DNA of 7,577 nucleotides from Chloroflexota bacterium. GTDB taxonomy: Bacteria; Chloroflexota; Anaerolineae; Promineifilales; Promineifilaceae. The notes under the pieces were generated by a model, which did not search any database, was not told the origin of the DNA, and saw only the letters and a program-made list of their open reading frames with translations. Position numbers and translations under genes: made by a program. The stretch is from NCBI GenBank assembly GCA_008501785.1, contig QQUD01000935.1, forward strand, positions 1-7,577, in the 5' to 3' direction. The first letter of the stretch is position 1. Each line of letters starts with the position of its first letter. Of the stretch, positions 1 through 6,655 are shown piece by piece.

Positions 1-671
1 TCTTCTAGATAAAGTTTCTCTACTTCAGATGGTGCGACACGGCTGATTTCTGTTACTTTGTACACAAATAGGTTTCCGTTGGTTTCGTAATGCACTTCTG
101 TTTCGTAAGTTGCGTATTGCAAGTTGGCAAATGCGCCGGTTTCAAGGGTGGTTGAGGTGGGGAATGTCATGTGTCCAGCAAAGACGGGGGCAAGTGTTCC
201 GCCTGGGTGGTTGCCTGTGCTGGTGAGGTGGCCGATGCGTTCGCCAAGCTGGGAGACATCCCAACGGCCGTTTTCCAATGGCAGGTTAACGATTGGCTGC
301 GAAATGTCCAATTCTGGGATATGCAAAAAGGCATGTTGTGTTGTGGTGTTGGTTGGTTTGTTGGCTGGTGGTTGAGCGGGGGTTGCCAGGATGAACACGC
401 TAGGTGGTGCAAGGGTGGGCGGTATGGACGTTGGGGATGTGACAACGGCCGTTTCTACATCAATGTTGAGTGGTGTAGATTGCTGCCAAACAGGATGCCG
501 ATTGGCAACAAGAAACAATCCAACGGATAGAAGTGAGGTGAAAACGGCCGTTCCTTGCAGCAAGCGTGCCGTAAATACTTGAGATTGCATCAGCCGGTGG
601 CGGCTTTCTAACCAGCAGGTTAGTGCTAGTCCACCAGCCAGTGCGCTCAGAACGATGCGCCACTCGATCAT
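1..671 (-). CDS. Sortase family transpeptidase, 3' end beyond the window
   Basis: Reading the minus strand from the ATG at 671-669 gives an open frame with no stop to the left edge: 223 complete codons, partial at the C-terminus. Residues 6-20 and 43-56 are hydrophobic, probable membrane segments. A Pro/Thr-rich linker (about 76-112) follows, then a sortase-like domain starting LHIPELDISQPIV. It contains FAGHMTF, whose H167 fits the conserved sortase catalytic His, and continues with the typical GAFANLQYATYETEV strand region. The catalytic Cys and Arg would lie outside the window. Sortases cleave an LPxTG-like signal between Thr and Gly and attach the protein to the envelope. The start codon overlaps the stop of the upstream DUF11 gene (ATGA), and that gene ends in FPETG, so it is the likely substrate. 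The class (D/E/F-like) is not resolved. Three ACGGCCGT copies lie inside. Confidence 0.82.
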   Translation of the reverse strand, partial: MIEWRIVLSALAGGLALTCWLESRHRLMQSQVFTARLLQGTAVFTSLLSVGLFLVANRHPVWQQSTPLNIDVETAVVTSPTSIPPTLAPPSVFILATPAQPPANKPTNTTTQHAFLHIPELDISQPIVNLPLENGRWDVSQLGERIGHLTSTGNHPGGTLAPVFAGHMTFPTSTTLETGAFANLQYATYETEVHYETNGNLFVYKVTEISRVAPSEVEKLYLE

Positions 672-1846
672 TCGAGTGAACGGCGACGCTGTCGCCACAG
701 CCAGATGGCTACTGGTGTGGTGGCGGCGATGAGGGCGAAAACGGCCGTTAGTGGCGAAACACCTGCTGGTGGAATGCCTGTTTCTGGAAATGCTGCGGCG
801 GGAACGGCAGTTGCGGTTGCGGTTGCCGTTGCGGTTGGGATGGGTGTTTCTGTTGGTGATGGTTCTGAAGGAGATGAAGGCTTTGGTGTTTTGGTTGGAA
901 TGGGCGCAGGCGTGTCAGTTGGTGCTGGCGTACTTGTTGGCGTTGGTGCATCAATGATGGTGATGGGTACATCGTCCTTCCCTCCGTCCATATCATTGCT
1001 GTACCAGTCAACTGCGCCAGAAATAGAGGCTTCGTTAACTGTATTGATGGTTGACATCAGTGCGGTGAAGACTACTGTCACATCGACACTACCAAATGCG
1101 GGGATGTCGCCAAACCAGGTGGTGAGGTCTGTCCAGGTTAAAACACCTGTCATTGTGTCGATGAAGTCTGGGGGCGGAACGGCCGTGTTAAATTGAATCG
1201 CCAGCGGATCGTAATTCTCGGTAAGTGGCACAATGGTTGTGGTGACTGCGCCATCATTGGTAATCGAAATTGTGAAGGTGATGGGCAAACCAGCGGTTGG
1301 CGTGATGCCATCATTGATACGTTTATCAAGTGGCATACTGCCACCAATCGATTCGCCAGATTGGTCTGTATCATCGCTGCCCCCTAACGCACCGCCCGAG
1401 CCAATCGCATCGTGAACTTCTGCTCGATTGACAATCGCTGTTTCAGGGTGTTCGGCAATAAAACCGACAACAACAACGACTGTCTGCCCTGGTGCCAGAT
1501 CGCCAAATTGGGTGGTCAAGTCTGTCCAATCAATCTGACCAGTTGTGGTAACGACTGAATCGGGCGCAGGGGTGGCATCGACGTAAGCTAAAACGGCCGT
1601 GTTAAACGTATCTGATAATGGCAGTGTGGTGACCGTAAAAGCAGAGTTGTTTGTTATTTCAATTGTAAATGTGAGGTATTCACCGACACGAACCACCGGG
1701 TTTGTGCGTCCTAGACGCTTGTCAACGGTGATGTCACCTGATTGGGCTTGTACGGTTTGGGTGGTTGCTGAAAAGATCGGCAAAGAAAATAAGAAATATA
1801 CTGGTAACAATACAGTGAGAATAATTAGTAAAATACGCTTCTTCAT
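668..1846 (-). CDS. Secreted DUF11-repeat surface protein with FPETG sorting signal
   Basis: The protein has 392 residues. A Lys/Arg start and hydrophobic stretch (about 4-27) form a signal peptide, with a likely cut after VQA (residue 34). Two DUF11-like modules follow (about 38-147 and 172-298). They share the near-identical strings IDWTDLTTQFGD and LTWTDLTTWFGD, so the second looks like an internal duplication. A Pro/Thr linker (300-350) contains an in-frame Thr-Ala run. The C-terminus is a textbook cell-wall sorting signal: FPETG at 353-357, a hydrophobic helix (about 365-385), and RQRRRSLE. DUF11 modules are beta-sandwich units of exported surface proteins; the ligand is unknown. The sequence GGGGA lies 7 bases before the ATG. 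The gene is first in an operon with the overlapping sortase, which suggests dedicated anchoring. Confidence 0.85.
   Translation of the reverse strand: MKKRILLIILTVLLPVYFLFSLPIFSATTQTVQAQSGDITVDKRLGRTNPVVRVGEYLTFTIEITNNSAFTVTTLPLSDTFNTAVLAYVDATPAPDSVVTTTGQIDWTDLTTQFGDLAPGQTVVVVVGFIAEHPETAIVNRAEVHDAIGSGGALGGSDDTDQSGESIGGSMPLDKRINDGITPTAGLPITFTISITNDGAVTTTIVPLTENYDPLAIQFNTAVPPPDFIDTMTGVLTWTDLTTWFGDIPAFGSVDVTVVFTALMSTINTVNEASISGAVDWYSNDMDGGKDDVPITIIDAPTPTSTPAPTDTPAPIPTKTPKPSSPSEPSPTETPIPTATATATATAVPAAAFPETGIPPAGVSPLTAVFALIAATTPVAIWLWRQRRRSLE
811..834. repeat. Hexanucleotide tandem repeat in the DUF11 linker
   Basis: Four successive TTGCSG hexamers (three TTGCGG, one TTGCCG) encode alternating Thr-Ala on the minus strand. 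The unit is six bases, so slippage would lengthen or shorten the linker before FPETG without breaking the frame. Confidence 0.6.
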
Positions 1847-1898
1847 ATCAATTCCCCATTAATATCTAGCTTGATACTTGAACCAACGATCAGGTTGA

Positions 1899-1927
1899 AT
1901 TATAGGTTGTTCTTGAGAAATTGTTAA
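1899..1927 (-). promoter_or_regulatory. Sigma70-type promoter of the DUF11-sortase operon
   Basis: On the minus strand, TTAACA (1927-1922) is followed by exactly 17 bases and then a perfect TATAAT (1904-1899). The start of transcription would be near 1892, leaving a leader of about 45 bases before the ATG at 1846. No other promoter-like pair this good was seen in the window. Confidence 0.7.
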
Positions 1928-1977
1928 CGTCCTAGGACCAGCGGGGAAAATTGGGGGCGAGTTACGGCCGTTTCCGA

Positions 1978-1983
1978 TACAAT
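1978..1983 (+). promoter_or_regulatory. Possible -10 box for a leaderless yciH transcript
   Basis: TACAAT ends 7 bases before the ATG at 1991, so transcription would begin at or next to the start codon. No Shine-Dalgarno sequence is visible in the 20 bases before the ATG. No convincing -35 box was found at 16-18 bases; TTGGGG at 1951 is too far away. Confidence 0.35.
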
Positions 1984-1990
1984 CATACGC

Positions 1991-2350
1991 ATGTCAAGAC
2001 GAAGAAAACGAAACGTTGTTTACTCCACCGATTCCGCATTTGCCAAACGCTGCCAGCGATGTGGCAGCTATCCTTGTCGCTGCCCCAAGCCAAAAAGTTT
2101 GCCCCCAGAAAAACAAACAGCAGGTATTCGACATGAGAAGAAGGGTCGTCGCGGTAAAACTGTGACGGTGATTATGGATTTGCAGCTAACGCCAGATGAT
2201 TTGAAGGCGCTAGGCAAAATGCTGAAGCAAAAATGTGGTACGGGCGGTGCAATTAAAGATGGAAATATCGAAATCCAGGGCGAACACCGTGAGAAAGTTG
2301 CCGCAGAATTAAACAAGTTGGGTTATAAAACGAAATTTGTCGGGGGGTAG
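1991..2350 (+). CDS. yciH: YciH/SUI1 family translation factor (eIF1-like)
   Basis: The protein has 119 residues, close to the 108 of E. coli YciH. The SUI1 domain fills the C-terminal half: RRGKTVTVI (53-61), KCGTGGAIKDGNIEIQG (81-97), and an end at GYKTKFVGG. These match the family signature (K-CG-GG--K-G-IEIQG). The N-terminus has VYSTD, as in YciH, then four cysteines in CQRCGSYPCRC (C21, C24, C29, C31). That spacing could bind zinc and E. coli YciH lacks it. Eukaryotic eIF1 and archaeal aIF1 monitor start-codon choice on the small ribosomal subunit; the bacterial role is less clear and is assigned by homology. The gene stands alone, divergent from the surface operon. It has no visible ribosome binding site. 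Confidence 0.9.
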   Translation: MSRRRKRNVVYSTDSAFAKRCQRCGSYPCRCPKPKSLPPEKQTAGIRHEKKGRRGKTVTVIMDLQLTPDDLKALGKMLKQKCGTGGAIKDGNIEIQGEHREKVAAELNKLGYKTKFVGG

Positions 2351-2387
2351 AAAAAAGCAGCAATGCAAAATTATGGCGCATTGCTGC
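2351..2387 (-). terminator. Intrinsic terminator of the deaminase transcript
   Basis: A perfect 10-base-pair stem, GCAGCAATGC (2357-2366) with GCATTGCTGC (2378-2387), encloses an 11-base loop. On the minus strand the stem is followed directly by six T's (2356-2351), the classic terminator form. It lies 93 bases past the deaminase stop and abuts the yciH stop on the other strand. For yciH the same hairpin lacks a T tract, so it would work poorly in that direction. Confidence 0.75.
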
Positions 2388-2480
2388 AATGAGGAAATTA
2401 ATTATCCAGGCAACCGTTCAGGTGCGATGCACTTTTCCTAGAGTAATGCACTACCGTATTCTTCAAAATAGATTTATCAA

Positions 2481-2924
2481 CTAAATTCTATTTGCTACTA
2501 GGTAGTTATCGATTTCCTTACATTCTTCTTCTAATAAAGGACCCGTACAGCTAACCCCTTGTCTAGAGAAAAAATCCTTCATATCTTCATCATCCTTCCA
2601 CTGATGACTTGATGGCACTCCGTAATAAACTGCATCAATTCCACTCCAGACAATAGCTGATGCACACATTGGACACGGTTGCTGGGTGGTGAAGATTTGG
2701 CATGTTTCTAAACTCCCTTCCATTTTCGCTAAAGCTCCGCGAATTGCCTTAAGTTCTGCATGTGCCAATGGGTCCTTATCTTTCTCAATCGAAGTCATTT
2801 CACGCCAAATAACTTCTCTCCCTTTTACAATATATGTTCCAGTGAACGTTTTGTATTCCAATGCTCTTTCTCGTGTAAATTGGATTAAATCATTCATTAT
2901 CCGATACACTCGTTCCTCTTGCAT
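2481..2924 (-). CDS. Zinc-dependent nucleoside/cytidine deaminase family protein (GuaD/TadA-like)
   Basis: The protein has 147 residues and carries the deaminase signature. HAE at 55-57 gives the zinc ligand H55 and the proton-shuttling E57; PCPMC at 83-87 gives zinc ligands C84 and C87. The family hydrolytically removes an amino group from a base in a nucleoside, free base or tRNA. Length and the PCPMC form fit the guanine deaminase / TadA group, but the substrate cannot be told from sequence, and residues 30-50 do not match the usual TadA core closely. GGAGGA 6 bases before the ATG is the best ribosome binding site in the window and fixes the start. The gene looks more AT-rich than its neighbours and lacks ACGGCCGT, which could mean transfer. 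It lies 113 bases after DUF456 on the same strand and has its own terminator. Confidence 0.8.
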   Translation of the reverse strand: MQEERVYRIMNDLIQFTRERALEYKTFTGTYIVKGREVIWREMTSIEKDKDPLAHAELKAIRGALAKMEGSLETCQIFTTQQPCPMCASAIVWSGIDAVYYGVPSSHQWKDDEDMKDFFSRQGVSCTGPLLEEECKEIDNYLVANRI

Positions 2925-2944
2925 TCACTTTCCTCCATATCTCA

Positions 2945-2961
2945 TCATTTTTATTTGTCAA
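2945..2961 (-). promoter_or_regulatory. Possible -35 box for the deaminase gene
   Basis: A consensus TTGACA occurs on the minus strand at 2961-2956, in the gap between DUF456 and the deaminase. The best -10 at 16 bases is only TATGGA and would overlap the ribosome binding site. The assignment is therefore weak. Confidence 0.25.
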
Positions 2962-3004
2962 GCTGCTCAACGCAATGTTCATTGGTGAGTGAGAAAACCA
3001 ATTT

Positions 3005-3035
3005 CTTTCAAAGTTATTGAACTTGTTGTTGAAAG
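3005..3035 (-). terminator. Imperfect hairpin after DUF456
   Basis: Just past the DUF456 stop, CTTTCA/TGAAAG arms enclose a second short stem, AAGTT/AACTT, with a CAAT loop and a 5-base bulge on one side. The T tract after it is poor (TTGGTTTT). It may be a weak terminator or a processing site. Confidence 0.25.
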
Positions 3036-3037
3036 GG

Positions 3038-3538
3038 CTAACTTGCTGAGAAGTAGCCTATAAAAAATATCATGCACATTAGCAACCCTCCAACAAATTG
3101 GATTGCTGTCGCAATACCCCAACCTGCAATACCCCCCATGCCTGCCTTTTTGGCAGTTTCCCAGTCACCATGCTTTTTATATTCACCATAAAGAAGCCCA
3201 GCAGCATAACCAATAATCGTCCCCAACAGTGGCAGTATAAACGTGCCTAAAATAGCACCTCCAGCCCCATATAAAAGGGCTTCCTTAGAAGCACCTCCCT
3301 TTTTAGCGCCAAGATATGACATCCAGTAATCGGCCGTGCCAGTTATTAATGCGATGAGCGTGATCCAAATGATGCGGCCGCCGGAGAGCGTATCAAAGCC
3401 TGTAAGCAAGCCATACCCGATCACCGCCAGCCAAATAATAAAAACACCTGGAATCAGGGGCACAATCGTTCCGATGATTCCAATGAACAAAAATACAACT
3501 GTTAAAGCAAATGCAATCGACTGTAGTAATTCAATCAT
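3038..3538 (-). CDS. DUF456 family integral membrane protein
   Basis: The protein has 166 residues and is strongly hydrophobic throughout. Probable membrane segments are about 7-42 (kinked at the conserved PLIPG, 27-31), 55-75, 88-118 and 134-162. The VPLIPGVFIIWLAVIGYGLL stretch, the Gly-rich AKKGGASKEALLYGAGGAILG loop and the TIIGYAAGLLYGEY segment are typical of DUF456, a family without an established function. It has no signal peptide beyond its first helix. It reads toward the deaminase but is separated by 113 bases. The ATG lacks a Shine-Dalgarno sequence and lies 11 bases after a TATAAT. It contains TCGGCCGT and GCGGCCGC, near-misses of the window's repeated octamer. Confidence 0.8.
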   Translation of the reverse strand: MIELLQSIAFALTVVFLFIGIIGTIVPLIPGVFIIWLAVIGYGLLTGFDTLSGGRIIWITLIALITGTADYWMSYLGAKKGGASKEALLYGAGGAILGTFILPLLGTIIGYAAGLLYGEYKKHGDWETAKKAGMGGIAGWGIATAIQFVGGLLMCMIFFIGYFSAS

Positions 3539-3549
3539 AATGATTTGGG

Positions 3550-3578
3550 ATTATAACATGACTAATAAGCTATGCAGA
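3550..3578 (-). promoter_or_regulatory. Promoter with TATAAT just before DUF456
   Basis: A perfect TATAAT lies at 3555-3550 on the minus strand, 11 bases before the ATG at 3538. Transcription would start about 5 bases ahead of the codon, leaving no room for a ribosome binding site. The -35 region (TCTGCA at 17 bases) is poor. Confidence 0.45.
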
Positions 3579-3673
3579 ATGAGGGTAATTGCGTTAAATG
3601 GACGTAAATTCCTAAAGTCACGCAATACTTGCTCATGATATAGTCGAAGCAATAAAAAATTTAAGGTTGAATG

Positions 3674-3690
3674 TTTGTATCTGATACAAA
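3674..3690 (+). promoter_or_regulatory. Inverted repeat over an extended -10 promoter of the pilin unit
   Basis: TTTGTATC (3674-3681) and GATACAAA (3683-3690) are perfect inverted arms around one central T. The right arm holds TGATACAAA, an extended -10 box (TG-N-TACAAA), ending 15 bases before the ATG at 3706. A dimeric regulator bound here would cover the polymerase site, so this is a candidate operator. No regulator gene is in the window. Confidence 0.5.
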
Positions 3691-3705
3691 ATTGAGCGGG
3701 GAATA

Positions 3706-4884
3706 ATGAACAAAGCAATAAATTGTCTTAAAAACAAAATATTGAGAAGTAATCCAGGTCAAAGTTTTGCAGAGTATGCGCTAATTTTGGGGTTGGTTGC
3801 AGCTGGGGCTATTTTATCTTTAGCGGTTATTGGTGTCGATACAAAAGAACTGTACCAACGGATTTATGACGCTTTTGGTCTTGTTGCTGATGATTTGCCA
3901 CCGGGCACAATTCAAGTCACGGTTTTGGATTCTGAGGGAAATGGTGCCAAAGACATCTGGGTCTATGCATTTGATGACAAAGGAGGCTGGACTGGCAGCT
4001 ATAAAAAAACAGATGAAAGTGGAAGCGTACTCTTTGAGGATATGAAAGATGGCGGCTATCAATTTTTAGCCTACCAAAGCAAATATTACTGGTCCAATGT
4101 GATTTCATTCCCTAGACAAAATTCTGTCACCATCGAAATGGAAAGTAATGACTTTACGGTGAAGGTGGTTGATGGAGATGGTAATGGTGTTAGCGGCGTG
4201 TATGTGTATACTTACACCGCGAATGAACGCTATTGGCTGGGTGTTTATGATCAAACTGGCAAGGATGGCACAGTCACATTAAACGTGCCAAATGGTGATT
4301 ACAAATTCCGAGCGTATCATCGTAACCATTGGTATTGGTCCCCAGCCGTCAATTCACCTGCTCAAAACTCAACAGTTATTGATTTGAAAGAAGAGGAGAT
4401 GATGGTAACAGTTGTCGATGAGGCAGGTAATGGTGTGAAGGCAGCAAACTTGTATGTATATGCGTACACGGAAAGTGGCTCTTACACGGGGGTTTATGGT
4501 ACGACCAATGGAAACGGCCGTGTTCAACTCACAGTGCCCGCAGGTGATTACAAATTCCGCGTTTATTACCGCGCAAACAATTATTGGTCTGATCTTGTTA
4601 ATTCACCTGATAAAGATGAAGCAGTGATTGAGACAGGAGAACGGCCGTTTACCGTCACCATCGTCGATGAAAGTGGACAGCCTGTTAAAAATGCGTGGGT
4701 CTATCCATATTCTGGCAACAACGTGTATACCGGTTTAAGTGGACGCACCAACAATCAGGGTCAGATTGTTTTCAACATTCCCGAAGGGAACTTTACATTC
4801 CGCGCTGATTACAAAGGCACTTCTTATTGGTCAGCGGCAATCAGCAATCCACCGGCTACAAACACAACCGTAACGGTGAAATAA
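3706..4884 (+). CDS. Flp/type IVb pilin-like N-terminus fused to four beta-sandwich repeats
   Basis: The protein has 392 residues. It begins with a short basic leader, then NPGQSFAEYALILGLVAAGA. This matches the Flp pilin pattern: a prepilin peptidase cut after G18, Glu at +5 (E23), Tyr at +6 (Y24), and a hydrophobic helix to about residue 43. A usual Flp pilin ends soon after (50-70 residues). Here four repeats of about 80 residues follow (68-147, 148-229, 230-311, 312-392), each with VTVVD--GNGV, a YVYAY strand, TG-DG, GDYKFRAY and YWS--VNSP. They resemble carboxypeptidase-regulatory or CnaB-like beta-sandwich folds. The protein is probably exported and membrane- or pilus-associated, with an adhesive stalk. 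GGGGA precedes the ATG. No Tad assembly genes are visible. Functional role is inferred. Confidence 0.75.
   Translation: MNKAINCLKNKILRSNPGQSFAEYALILGLVAAGAILSLAVIGVDTKELYQRIYDAFGLVADDLPPGTIQVTVLDSEGNGAKDIWVYAFDDKGGWTGSYKKTDESGSVLFEDMKDGGYQFLAYQSKYYWSNVISFPRQNSVTIEMESNDFTVKVVDGDGNGVSGVYVYTYTANERYWLGVYDQTGKDGTVTLNVPNGDYKFRAYHRNHWYWSPAVNSPAQNSTVIDLKEEEMMVTVVDEAGNGVKAANLYVYAYTESGSYTGVYGTTNGNGRVQLTVPAGDYKFRVYYRANNYWSDLVNSPDKDEAVIETGERPFTVTIVDESGQPVKNAWVYPYSGNNVYTGLSGRTNNQGQIVFNIPEGNFTFRADYKGTSYWSAAISNPPATNTTVTVK
3907..4881 (+). repeat. Four tandem protein-repeat units in the pilin-like gene
   Basis: Units start near 3907, 4147, 4393 and 4639 and are about 240-246 bases each. Units 2 and 3 are most alike at the protein level (GDYKFRAY and GDYKFRVYY, VNSP in both). 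Units 1 and 4 are more diverged. DNA identity is low enough that recent recombination is not evident. Confidence 0.7.
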
Positions 4885-4897
4885 GAAGGGGAATAAG

Positions 4898-5317
4898 ATG
4901 ACAGATGACATGAAACCAAAACGTGACATGGATAACGCATTGCAATCATTGCGTACAGGTTATGAGCAAACAGTCGATATTCAAGAAAGCCAGCCAGAAC
5001 CTATCGAAGGGAAAGAGTTGCGCGAACGCCGTTTTCCCAAAATGATGTCTTATTTTGTAGGTGGCTTGGCTGTGGGCATGTTGGTAATGGCCGTTTTCCT
5101 CTTCAGCGTTCAGTCTCGGCCTGTAACCGAACCGACAATTGTTGAATTGGATGCGACAGTTGAAGATGAAACGGCCGTTGTGGTTGATGACGTGAACATA
5201 CCACCTCCGCCGACTCCCCCCATTTTTAACCAATCAGCAGTACCACCTATTCCCGACGATGCAATTCCACTGCCCCCAGAACCGACGCCCTGGCCGACGC
5301 CAGCAATTGAACCGTAA
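4898..5317 (+). CDS. Single-pass membrane protein with Pro-rich tail, function unknown
   Basis: The protein has 139 residues and matches no family that I recognise. A polar, charged N-terminal part (1-49, ending RERRFPK) is followed by one membrane helix (about 51-71). The outer part is acidic and Pro-rich (IPPPPTPP, IPLPPEPTPWPTP). The positive cluster before the helix predicts a cytoplasmic N-terminus and an external tail. It starts 13 bases after the pilin-like gene with AAGGGGA in good position, so the two are surely one transcript. A partner role in display, anchoring or assembly of the pilin-like protein is a guess from position alone. Confidence 0.7.
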   Translation: MTDDMKPKRDMDNALQSLRTGYEQTVDIQESQPEPIEGKELRERRFPKMMSYFVGGLAVGMLVMAVFLFSVQSRPVTEPTIVELDATVEDETAVVVDDVNIPPPPTPPIFNQSAVPPIPDDAIPLPPEPTPWPTPAIEP

Positions 5318-5324
5318 CAATCTA

Positions 5325-5378
5325 GGTATCAGGTAATCAGGTTTCAGCAATCTGGGCTGAAACCTGATACCTGATACC
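5325..5378. terminator. Long hairpin between converging units
   Basis: Arms 5325-5347 and 5357-5378 pair over 22 base pairs with a single bulged A, around a 9-base loop. Each arm is itself built from the repeated unit GGTATCA-GGTATCA-GGTTTCA. It sits between the stops of the plus-strand unit (5317) and the muramidase (5382). It could end transcription from both sides, although neither side has a good T tract. It may also belong to a REP-like dispersed family. Confidence 0.55.
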
Positions 5379-5381
5379 TTC

Positions 5382-6635
5382 CTACCCTTTAATTCTCTGA
5401 AAAGCTTCAAACAAATTGCGGATGATTGTTGAATAGGTTGCCGCTTGTCCTGGGCCGTTGTAAAGCGAGGCAAATGTCTCGTAATCATTGCGCTGTAAAG
5501 CAACGAGACGACGTGTGTCAGAAACAGGCCCCTTCACAAAGTCAAAAAAGCCGGTAATTTGACTGGCGTCATCTTTGCTAAACGCATCAAACATTTGATG
5601 GACTGATTCGTAACCAATTGTGGCATAGTTGAACCCCATAATTTGTGGACCGCCCATGCTAATTGAAAGTCGTGCTGACGTGCGGCTTAAGGATTCTGCA
5701 AATTGCAGCACATCCCATTCTTTGTTCTGATTGCCGTGAAAACTACTCCAGGGTGTGCTGGCATTTGGCCGCCACTCGTGCCCTTGCCACGGACGGCTGT
5801 CCTGATGGCGAAAATGGTTATTGAATTGGTCTTGATGCGTTTTGCCCCAATAGTTTTTGAATATATGGTTTTCGAAACGAATCACCATACGGCCGTTTCG
5901 AAAACCAGACCCGCCAGCTTCTGCCACAAAAACGGCTGCTGCTACACCCGGTCCGATGTCTAGTCGGTTCGCTAGCACGGTGAATAAGCCGCCAAATTTA
6001 TTCCAGATGCGCCCCAGGCTTTTCTCGGTGCCGCTCATGCTTGAAAAAATGGTAATTTTTTCGCTATCAACTGGGGAAAGTGGCGTGTCTGCAATGGCTG
6101 GTTCTTCCTCTTTCTCTTTGGTTTCAATAAAACCGGCCGCCCCACCTTCCTGATCAAGCTTGATAAAGCCGCTGTGAACAAATCCTTCTTGTCCATTGGC
6201 ATTAACGCGGAACCAGTCGCCTTGACGTTCTAAAATCGTAACCTGTGCGCCCAATGGCAATACGCTAATGATCGAATTACCTGTGCTCGGGCCTGATCTA
6301 AAATTGAGAATGTCTGTTGTTTTGCCGGTCGCTTTTTTAGAAGCAACCAGAATTGGCGTTTCCATCTCTTCGGCATCCAATGATACAGGCCCGGCCATTG
6401 CTGCGGGCGCAGCAGCTTCCACCCCAGCTGCAGCAGTTCCAGTTTCATCTAGCACAATGTAATCATTGCGCAGCCATCCATCTACACCATCTGCCTGAAC
6501 GTTAAACCAGCTGCCATCTTCAAATTTGATGCTGACGGGCGTCATGGGACGCAGCACTTGCACACGATTGTGTTCTGAGCCGGGGCCTGAGCGGAGAATA
6601 ACGGCCGTTTTCGTCTTACCAGTTCGAGTTGTCAT
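5382..6635 (-). CDS. SH3b-SH3b N-acetylmuramidase (DUF3380-type lysozyme)
   Basis: The protein has 417 residues from the second of two adjacent ATGs. GGAGG lies 4 bases before that ATG but only 1 base before the first (6638), so the second is preferred. Two bacterial SH3 domains (about 9-62 and 102-160, each with a RSGPS/RSGPG core) are separated by an Ala-rich linker, with a Glu-rich linker after the second. The last 205 residues match the N-acetylmuramidase (DUF3380) family: AEAGGSGF with the probable catalytic Glu (E240, numbered from the first ATG), RFENHIF, GGPQIMGFNYATIGY, FFDFVKG and YNGPGQA. It should cut the glycan of peptidoglycan, with the SH3b units binding the wall. No signal peptide or membrane helix is seen, so export needs lysis or another route. 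Endolysin origin is possible. Confidence 0.85.
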   Translation of the reverse strand: MTTRTGKTKTAVILRSGPGSEHNRVQVLRPMTPVSIKFEDGSWFNVQADGVDGWLRNDYIVLDETGTAAAGVEAAAPAAMAGPVSLDAEEMETPILVASKKATGKTTDILNFRSGPSTGNSIISVLPLGAQVTILERQGDWFRVNANGQEGFVHSGFIKLDQEGGAAGFIETKEKEEEPAIADTPLSPVDSEKITIFSSMSGTEKSLGRIWNKFGGLFTVLANRLDIGPGVAAAVFVAEAGGSGFRNGRMVIRFENHIFKNYWGKTHQDQFNNHFRHQDSRPWQGHEWRPNASTPWSSFHGNQNKEWDVLQFAESLSRTSARLSISMGGPQIMGFNYATIGYESVHQMFDAFSKDDASQITGFFDFVKGPVSDTRRLVALQRNDYETFASLYNGPGQAATYSTIIRNLFEAFQRIKG

Positions 6636-6655
6636 CATACCTCCATAATTGAAAT

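What the first reader, a model, noticed from the sequence alone, without database searches (positions are those of the whole stretch)
264..6608. HIP1-like overrepresented palindrome ACGGCCGT
Twelve exact copies of an 8-base palindrome occur in 7.6 kb, where about 0.1 is expected for random sequence. The copies fall in all three reading frames and one intergenic site. This points to selection or a process acting on DNA rather than protein. Cyanobacterial HIP1 (GCGATCGC) is the known parallel. The core CGGCCG suggests a methylation, repair or nucleoid-protein site.
Basis: partly seen in the sequence, partly recalled or inferred. Interest (0 to 1): 0.75.

Follow-up and report, generated by a model that had tools for sequence, protein, structure and literature searches.

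The report
Saturating genome-wide palindrome in Chloroflexota
An eight-base palindrome has been written thousands of times into the genomes of a group of uncultured Chloroflexota bacteria, at most places where the encoded proteins allow it; related species use different versions of the word, and what writes it is unknown.

Summary
In detail: 12 exact ACGGCCGT in 7,577 bases, 0.06 expected. The window's genome is not held; its SUI1 protein points to the Chloroflexota order around Promineifilaceae/Ardenticatenaceae. There ACGGCCGT reaches 15,176 copies per genome, and 27 of 56 genomes carry at least 0.9 per kb. Of amino-acid contexts able to encode it synonymously, 75-97% by frame do, whatever the distance to the next copy; at unchanged amino acids sites persist across species. 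Relatives carry other words: TCGGCCGA, GCGGCCGC, CGGCCG, TGCCGGCA. Cyanobacterial HIP1 fills its contexts similarly in two plasmid stretches, so this works like HIP1 in another phylum. HIP1's methyltransferase link is not reproduced: G229, with CGGCCG fourfold above codon-use expectation, matches neither methylase family searched. An orphan methyltransferase-like gene is kept in 29 of 31 octamer genomes and 0 of 8 hexamer or TGCCGGCA genomes, but also in 14 of 17 others. The writer is unknown; I favour a site-local bias over uptake, spaced repair marks or codon effects; weak per-site selection stays open.

The parts
264..271 (.). ACGGCCGT copy 1, in open frame 3-698 (-), sortase-like by my reading; reads Asn-Gly-Arg
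445..452 (.). ACGGCCGT copy 2, same frame; Thr-Ala-Val
544..551 (.). ACGGCCGT copy 3, same frame; Thr-Ala-Val
741..748 (.). ACGGCCGT copy 4, in open frame 668-1846 (-); Thr-Ala-Val
1179..1186 (.). ACGGCCGT copy 5, same frame; Thr-Ala-Val
1593..1600 (.). ACGGCCGT copy 6, same frame; Thr-Ala-Val
1964..1971 (.). ACGGCCGT copy 7, intergenic, 19 bases before the SUI1/YciH-like gene at 1991
4514..4521 (.). ACGGCCGT copy 8, in open frame 3706-4884 (+); Asn-Gly-Arg
4641..4648 (.). ACGGCCGT copy 9, same frame; Arg-Pro
5171..5178 (.). ACGGCCGT copy 10, in open frame 4898-5317 (+); Thr-Ala-Val
5889..5896 (.). ACGGCCGT copy 11, in open frame 5382-6638 (-); Asn-Gly-Arg
6601..6608 (.). ACGGCCGT copy 12, same frame; Thr-Ala-Val
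804..811 (.). one-mismatch neighbour ACGGCAGT: the one Thr-Ala-Val context of the called frames not written as ACGGCCGT (7 of 8 are), and the only one of the five one-mismatch neighbours whose change would be synonymous
1991..2350 (+). SUI1/YciH-like gene, used to place the window and to fetch relatives

Best explanation
ACGGCCGT is the highly iterated palindrome of this Chloroflexota clade, the same kind of thing as cyanobacterial HIP1. A sequence-reading factor with a shared CGGCCG core and lineage-specific flanking preference exerts a force at each site. That force turns sequences one or two steps away into the perfect palindrome and keeps them there wherever the encoded protein tolerates it. 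Shown: genome-wide excess and saturation in relatives, conservation at unchanged amino acids, loss of synonymous near-sites, independence from neighbouring copies, different words in related lineages. Inferred: that one family of recognition proteins lies behind the CGGCCG dialects, and that the force is a biased conversion (ratchet) rather than many tiny fitness gains; the data do not separate these two. A lead only: an orphan methyltransferase-like protein (P0121) tracks the octamer dialects and may set the outer base.
For: Copies per genome up to 15,176. 511 observed against 11 expected in 19 pooled loci. Saturation 393/406, 310/352, 153/204 of synonymous contexts by frame; window itself 7/8, 3/4, 1/2. 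Synonymous one-mismatch near-sites 19 per 100,000 codons against 94 in 12 relatives. At same amino acids kept 78/78, 58/61, 134/137, 136/159, 1650/1846 in rising divergence bins, controls 0.55 to 0.17; without that restriction 82/84, 64/70, 154/163, 144/217, 1866/3038, controls 0.53 to 0.10. Occupancy 0.86 to 0.91 whatever the distance to the next copy, n = 1,342. Thr-Ala-Val contexts 406 in 178,008 codons against 18 in 46,833 in relatives, so the force reaches into protein sequence. Other words fill their contexts too: TCGGCCGA 48/63 and 43/60, GCGGCCGC 81/91, TGCCGGCA 43/81, CGGCCG 137/171 in G176. Five plasmid-like contigs 65/67, 52/64, 15/26 (chosen for density, see Tried and rejected). 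HIP1 in two cyanobacterial plasmid stretches 14/18, 8/13, 1/9 and 16/18, 7/16, 3/8. P0121 in 29/31 octamer genomes and 0/8 bare-hexamer or TGCCGGCA genomes.
Against: No writer is identified and no methylation, binding or mutation-rate data exist here. G015 and G286 have ACGGCCGT but no strong P0121 match; G286 is clearly incomplete, G015 is not obviously so. P0121 is also present in 14 of 17 genomes without a saturated word, so it is not sufficient. The P0121 test ignores shared ancestry: its absences fall into eight separate places on the rpoB tree, four of them among bare-hexamer or TGCCGGCA genomes. In relatives without the octamer dialect the word is not absent: 12 of 18 Thr-Ala-Val contexts are ACGGCCGT in seven such genomes (7/69 and 1/59 in the other frames) and 10 of 15 in the six hexamer genomes, and CGGCCG is about 1.3-2.6 times codon-use expectation in those seven, so the boundary is gradual. 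Weak selection with 2Ns near 6 would give the same saturation as a ratchet. The excess of transitions among inner one-mismatch alleles (11 of 13 against 0.54 expected, P = 0.02) is small and does not name a process.
Confidence: 0.6

Rival explanations
1. Methylation-coupled mismatch repair (Elhai's model for HIP1): a methyltransferase marks the palindrome, and repair guided by the mark favours mutations that create sites, until there is about one per kilobase.
For: Deviations fall mostly on the outer base, as reported for HIP1. The CGGCCG core would carry the G-methylC that the model needs (my inference). MutL is over cut-off in 41 of 43 genomes and MutS1 in 44 of 57. P0121 is a methyltransferase-like orphan kept in 29 of 31 octamer genomes.
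Against: CGGCCG has no A, so only a cytosine methylase could mark the hexamer itself; G229 (CGGCCG at 132 of 245 places, 4.1 times codon-use expectation) has no match to PF00145 or PF01555 and no P0121, though its rpoB, mutS1, mutL and comEC are all found. Nine ACGGCCGT genomes have no PF00145 match. The set point of about one site per 1,000 bases predicts weaker force next to an existing copy; overall none is seen, and densities reach 2.1 per kb genome-wide.
Confidence: 0.17
2. Per-site weak selection for a bound protein (nucleoid-associated or other): each copy gives a very small benefit of its own.
For: Saturation of Thr-Ala-Val contexts implies odds of about 450 to 1 against uniform codon choice (2Ns about 6), reachable by weak selection in large populations. 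Intergenic copies show an extended preference GGAA before and TTCC after the octamer, and in the TCGGCCGA dialect the neighbouring base is A or T in 95%, as for a protein footprint. Distance-independence fits.
Against: Related species have another word instead of thousands of copies of this one (0 ACGGCCGT among 22, 12, 32 and 35 contexts in the sampled stretches of G272, G120, G206 and G279), which is hard if each copy matters. No such protein is known here.
Confidence: 0.3
3. DNA uptake sequence: biased uptake during natural transformation spreads the word by molecular drive, with dialects as in Neisseriaceae.
For: Dialects with a shared core are known for Neisseriaceae uptake sequences (abstract of PMC3630211). 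ComEC is over cut-off in 40 of 43 genomes.
Against: The word is a perfect palindrome; known uptake sequences are not (recalled). Uptake of kilobase fragments predicts weaker drive for a site close to another; occupancy is 0.86 within 100 bp and 0.86 beyond 800 bp. ComEC is equally present in genomes without the octamer (G275, G276, G004, G009).
Confidence: 0.04
4. Composition, codon or peptide artefact, or spread with one gene family.
For: The commonest frame reads Thr-Ala-Val, codons frequent at this GC; the hexamer is mildly enriched across much of the order.
Against: All frames and intergenic DNA (84 against 0.95 expected), two control words at 0.00-0.23 occupancy, copies in unrelated frames, and other words in relatives with similar GC.
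Confidence: 0.01

Closest known systems
HIP1 (GCGATCGC) and alternate HIPs of cyanobacteria (Elhai 2015, PMC4390886; abstract, sections 2.3 and 2.5, parts 1-2 of 3 of the discussion, and found passages read)
   Same: GC-rich perfect palindrome at about 0.5-2.5 copies per kb, deviations concentrated on the outermost bases, palindromic extensions in some genomes, other palindromes in some relatives; synonymous saturation measured here for HIP1 in two plasmid stretches.
   Different: Different word, different phylum; one core persists while outer bases differ by lineage in one order; the alternate cyanobacterial HIPs are described as sporadic, whereas ACGGCCGT marks a clade; a CGGCCG-rich genome lacks both methylase families searched; occupancy independent of distance to the next copy, against the set point in Elhai's model.
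DNA uptake sequence dialects of Neisseriaceae (Frye 2013, PMC3630211; abstract and outline read)
   Same: Thousands of copies; lineage-specific dialects around a shared core; distribution follows the species tree.
   Different: Here a perfect palindrome; force local to each site; uptake gene comEC does not discriminate.
Type II restriction/modification sites CGGCCG, GCGGCCGC and GCCGGC (EagI-, NotI- and NgoMIV-like; names recalled)
   Same: The same palindromic cores.
   Different: Restriction systems usually deplete their sites (recalled); here they are in large excess, and no order-wide cytosine methylase was found.
DUF1156-type DNA methyltransferases (PF06634, NF042963)
   Same: P0121 has weak matches to PF06634 and to part of NF042963, and PF01555 and PF01170 over cut-off; its model is a methyltransferase fold.
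   Different: Scores below the family cut-offs (75.5 against 1,000 bits for NF042963; 18.1 against 24 for PF06634); no fixed neighbour in 19 loci; target unknown. VIA-align's best matches are tRNA methyltransferases, so even DNA as substrate is unproven.

Membership tests
Highly iterated palindromes (HIP class as described by Elhai 2015) | GC-rich palindrome of 5-8 bases, 50-100% GC | tested here: met
   ACGGCCGT is a perfect palindrome, 75% GC.
Highly iterated palindromes (HIP class as described by Elhai 2015) | Gross overrepresentation, about 500-2,500 copies per million bases | tested here: met
   27 of 56 genomes of the order at 0.9-2.1 per kb; 1.58 per kb in the window. The window's own genome is not held.
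Highly iterated palindromes (HIP class as described by Elhai 2015) | Dispersed in coding and intergenic DNA | tested here: met
   877 coding (1.61 per kb; frames 409, 311, 157) and 75 intergenic (1.06 per kb) of 955 sites.
Highly iterated palindromes (HIP class as described by Elhai 2015) | One-base deviations biased to the first and last base | tested here: met
   Outer 626 observed / 258 expected, inner 254 / 428; 22 of 35 distinct one-mismatch alleles are outer.
Highly iterated palindromes (HIP class as described by Elhai 2015) | A methyltransferase able to mark some part of the palindrome is present in every such genome (reported correlation) | tested here: inconclusive
   For the CGGCCG-rich G229 no match to PF00145 or PF01555; for ACGGCCGT genomes P0121 is a candidate of unknown specificity. 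Genomes are drafts; other methylase families were not searched.
HIP1 proper | Sequence GCGATCGC in a cyanobacterium | tested here: not met
   Different word; Chloroflexota. Works like HIP1, is not HIP1.
DNA uptake sequences | Non-palindromic, oriented word | tested here: not met
   Perfect palindrome; the defining feature itself is recalled.
DNA uptake sequences | Raises DNA uptake or transformation | not testable with these tools
   Needs a competent host; ComEC presence does not discriminate.

The most novel reading that the evidence does not exclude
A genome-writing process, not coupled to cytosine methylation, converts near-matches into a perfect palindrome at every site that proteins tolerate. 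It arose separately in Cyanobacteria and Chloroflexota, and its word can change between related species while the core stays, so each genome is overwritten again in the new dialect.
Probability: 0.35. Interest if true: 0.92.

Novelty: new variant of a known kind. Interest (0 to 1): 0.78.

Why it matters
HIP1 has stayed unexplained for decades (recalled), partly because it was known from one phylum in which motif, methylase and ancestry are confounded. Here is a second phylum with five words inside one order, several word differences on one tree, a CGGCCG-rich genome without a match to the expected methylase families, and related species that differ in word. That makes the question of what writes highly iterated palindromes open to comparative genomics and to native-DNA sequencing of relatives such as Candidatus Leptofilum. 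The word also changes proteins and may serve as a marker for assigning plasmids and viruses to these hosts.

Tried and rejected
Cytosine-5 methylase PF00145 as order-wide writer: over cut-off in 11 of 26 and 18 of 37 genomes (the two sets overlap), absent from many ACGGCCGT genomes. Four of the matches (L303, L304, L305, L318) look like CCWGG (Dcm-type) enzymes by recalled motif. PF01555: E <= 0.001 in 25 of 26 and 16 of 20 genomes (24 and 12 over cut-off), not one shared enzyme as far as seen, and none in G229, G288, G004 and G276.

P0121 as sufficient cause: rejected, because it is present without a saturated word in 14 of 17 genomes. A strong match means E of 3e-85 or better; several are partial, at contig ends. 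The 31 octamer genomes count G274, which has only 0.44 copies per kb and 3 of 6 contexts. A fixed partner gene beside P0121: none in 19 loci (in the 20th, L346, the script found no anchor). MutS1, MutL and ComEC do not separate genomes with and without the word; MutS1 is below cut-off in 13 of 57, probably partly missing contigs. In the fold comparison Foldseek put no match below E 0.001; its best are CcrM and archaeal tRNA methyltransferases, and VIA-align's are tRNA methyltransferases, so no specificity can be read off.

Their high density is therefore partly chosen, and I do not use it as evidence that mobile DNA carries more than chromosomes.

One search printed flank positions under wrong labels; one search replaces it. 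Literature: no report of this word or of a highly iterated palindrome in Chloroflexota was seen in the listings; listings were cut (20 of 196; 15 of 210; 10 of 20). The library holds open-licence papers only, so this is no proof of absence. PMC12772301, PMC6329791 and PMC4060949 were read in passages only.

Rows dropped: loci L179-L208 were left out; G274 and G286 were left out of the 26-genome clade set for thin data; windows with N or gaps were skipped. Gene calls are longest open frames, not curated. The six codon families include rpoB and fusA; the others were not verified. The confidences are not exclusive: ratchet and weak selection overlap.
Full report
OBSERVATION. The window holds 12 exact copies of ACGGCCGT; 200 dinucleotide-preserving shuffles average 0.06 and none reaches 12. 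It is the commonest palindromic 8-mer of the window, the next having 2 copies. Seven copies read Thr-Ala-Val, three Asn-Gly-Arg, one Arg-Pro, one is intergenic. Of 8 Thr-Ala-Val contexts in the called frames 7 are ACGGCCGT; the one-mismatch site at 804 is the other, and the remaining four one-mismatch sites would change an amino acid if turned into the palindrome.

WHERE IT COMES FROM. No whole genome is held for the window. The SUI1/YciH-like protein (1991-2350) has its nearest named relatives in Anaerolineales, Ardenticatenaceae and Promineifilaceae bacteria; the nearest genome locus is L001 at 85% identity, whose genome G001 belongs to the order searched below. NCBI places Candidatus Leptofilum, a source of P0121 homologues, in Promineifilales, Chloroflexota.

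GENOME-WIDE. Of 26 Chloroflexota loci (L001-L026), 18 have ACGGCCGT as top palindrome (0.66-2.8 per kb) and 8 have 0-3 copies; 8 unrelated control loci (L027-L034) have 0-1 (the other 46 of 80 loci were not counted). In 26 whole genomes counts run from 2 to 15,176. In the order of G005, 27 of 56 genomes have at least 0.9 per kb (genome sizes are rounded). In a sample of 249 genomes of the class, 8 have at least 0.4 per kb, and all 8 are also in the order list.

DIALECTS. DNA from order members poor in ACGGCCGT showed other words: TCGGCCGA in G272 and G120, GCGGCCGC in G206, bare CGGCCG in G176, G229 and G290-G293, TGCCGGCA in G279 and weakly in G004 (7 of 46). On an rpoB tree of 54 genomes (quick method; one row is the outgroup G019; G002, G282 and G286 have no row), the ACGGCCGT genomes form one clade (support 81), with G004 nested inside it and without the word (0 of 17 places). 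In G279 CGGCCG itself is depleted (5 of 417). The octamer has an extended preference (GGAA before, TTCC after) even between genes; beside TCGGCCGA the base is A or T in 95%; the bare hexamer has flat flanks.

SATURATION. For every amino-acid context that could encode ACGGCCGT without changing the protein, I asked whether it does. In 26 genomes of the clade the answer is yes in 393/406, 310/352 and 153/204 cases by frame; two control words give 0.00-0.23. In seven relatives without the dialect the same count gives 12/18, 7/69 and 1/59, so the Thr-Ala-Val frame is partly filled there too. One-mismatch sites whose conversion would be synonymous occur 19 times per 100,000 codons against 94 in 12 relatives, while those that would change an amino acid are reduced less, 217 against 310. 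Between genes, inner near-sites are 4 against 16.9 expected; in relatives 13 against 12. In orthologous codon alignments sites with unchanged amino acids are kept in 78/78, 58/61, 134/137, 136/159 and 1650/1846 cases with rising divergence, controls 0.55 to 0.17; counted whether or not the amino acids changed they are kept in 82/84, 64/70, 154/163, 144/217 and 1866/3038, controls 0.53 to 0.10 (pairs of genomes are not independent). Thr-Ala-Val contexts are about six times as frequent as in relatives (406 in 178,008 codons against 18 in 46,833), so the word pushes into proteins. Five contigs of viral contigs that look like plasmids or integrative elements by my reading, picked for density, are filled likewise (65/67, 52/64, 15/26).

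SITE-LOCAL FORCE. Among 1,342 contexts occupancy is 0.86, 0.88, 0.90, 0.91 and 0.86 for the next other copy at under 100, 100-200, 200-400, 400-800 and over 800 bp. Spacing has a coefficient of variation of 1.01, as for random placement, with fewer pairs under 20 bp (2 against 18.9) and small departures between 50 and 400 bp. A system that needs a site every so often (uptake, strand marking at one per kilobase, Chi) should weaken near an existing copy; no such effect is seen overall, except perhaps in the Arg-Pro frame (0.65 under 100 bp, 0.80 beyond 200 bp).

WRITER. Elhai reports that every cyanobacterial genome with a highly iterated palindrome has a methylase predicted to recognise some part of it. 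Here m5C methylases (PF00145) have no match in many ACGGCCGT genomes. G229, with CGGCCG at 132 of 245 places (4.1 times codon-use expectation; ACGGCCGT genomes 1.9-4.9, other hexamer genomes 6.8-9.8), has no match to PF00145, PF01555 or P0121, though rpoB, mutS1, mutL and comEC are found in it. P0121, a solitary 659-residue methyltransferase-like protein, is strongly matched in 29 of 31 genomes with an octamer on the CGGCCG core, in 0 of 6 with the enriched bare hexamer, 0 of 2 with TGCCGGCA and 14 of 17 of the rest (Fisher P = 7e-7 for 29/31 against 0/8, ignoring ancestry). Its model (pLDDT 87) is a methyltransferase fold split by a long insert, nearest to CcrM by Foldseek and to tRNA methyltransferases by VIA-align. 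It is a lead for what sets the outer base, not a proven writer.

COMPARISON WITH HIP1. In two cyanobacterial plasmid stretches HIP1 fills 14/18, 8/13, 1/9 and 16/18, 7/16, 3/8 of its synonymous contexts. So saturation is shared, less complete in the third frame, and the Chloroflexota words work like HIP1. Differences are the phylum, the clade-wide dialects on one core, and the failure of the methylase rule as far as it could be tested.

LIMITS. The genomes come without completeness values and most are fragmented drafts; gene calls are open frames; no methylation, binding or population data. Ratchet and weak per-site selection predict the same static pattern and are not separated.

Noticed in passing
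window 1972-4513: A 2.5 kb stretch without any copy (chance 0.018 for a single gap at the window's density; not unusual for the largest of 11 gaps), mostly of lower GC (0.41-0.44), holding a deaminase-like and a DUF456-like frame: possibly recently acquired DNA.
   Followed up: partly
window 5324-5379: Inverted repeat (aggtatcaggtaatcaggtttcag ... ctgaaacctgatacctgatacct, one extra base in the left arm) between two convergent open frames; looks like a shared terminator (read).
   Followed up: no
window 3-1846 (-): A sortase-like frame lies beside a protein with a proline-rich C-terminal stretch and PETG-like anchor motif; reads as a sortase and its substrate (my reading of the translations).
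   Followed up: no
pooled loci of G206, G176, G290, G021, G023: GCCGGC is strongly avoided in several CGGCCG-rich genomes (0/221, 0/108, 1/106, 3/169, 3/168 places), the mirror of CGGCCG avoidance in G279; other such genomes (for example G007, 39/195) do not avoid it.
   Followed up: partly
L364, L423 (IMGVR_UViG_3300033417_000002), L402 (IMGVR_UViG_3300048592_001391): Contigs filed as viral carry 2.8-3.7 copies per kb (found by a pattern that favours dense contigs) and encode ParA-, FtsK- and RadC-like (L364) or ParB-like (L402) proteins by my reading; they look like plasmids or integrative elements of these hosts. The word could serve as a host marker.
   Followed up: partly
G120:C1:577110-579030 (in L345): The P0121 homologue is split into two overlapping frames; gene broken or sequencing error. 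TCGGCCGA nevertheless fills 43 of 60 contexts there.
   Followed up: no
L346 (G056, same class, not in the order list): A genome outside the order with a P0121 homologue (50% identity) shows a twofold excess of GCCGGC (68 against 34) and a mild one of CGGCCG (50 against 34).
   Followed up: no
order genomes: MutS1 below cut-off in 13 of 57 genomes, among them large ACGGCCGT genomes (G007, G021, G003); missing contigs or real loss.
   Followed up: partly
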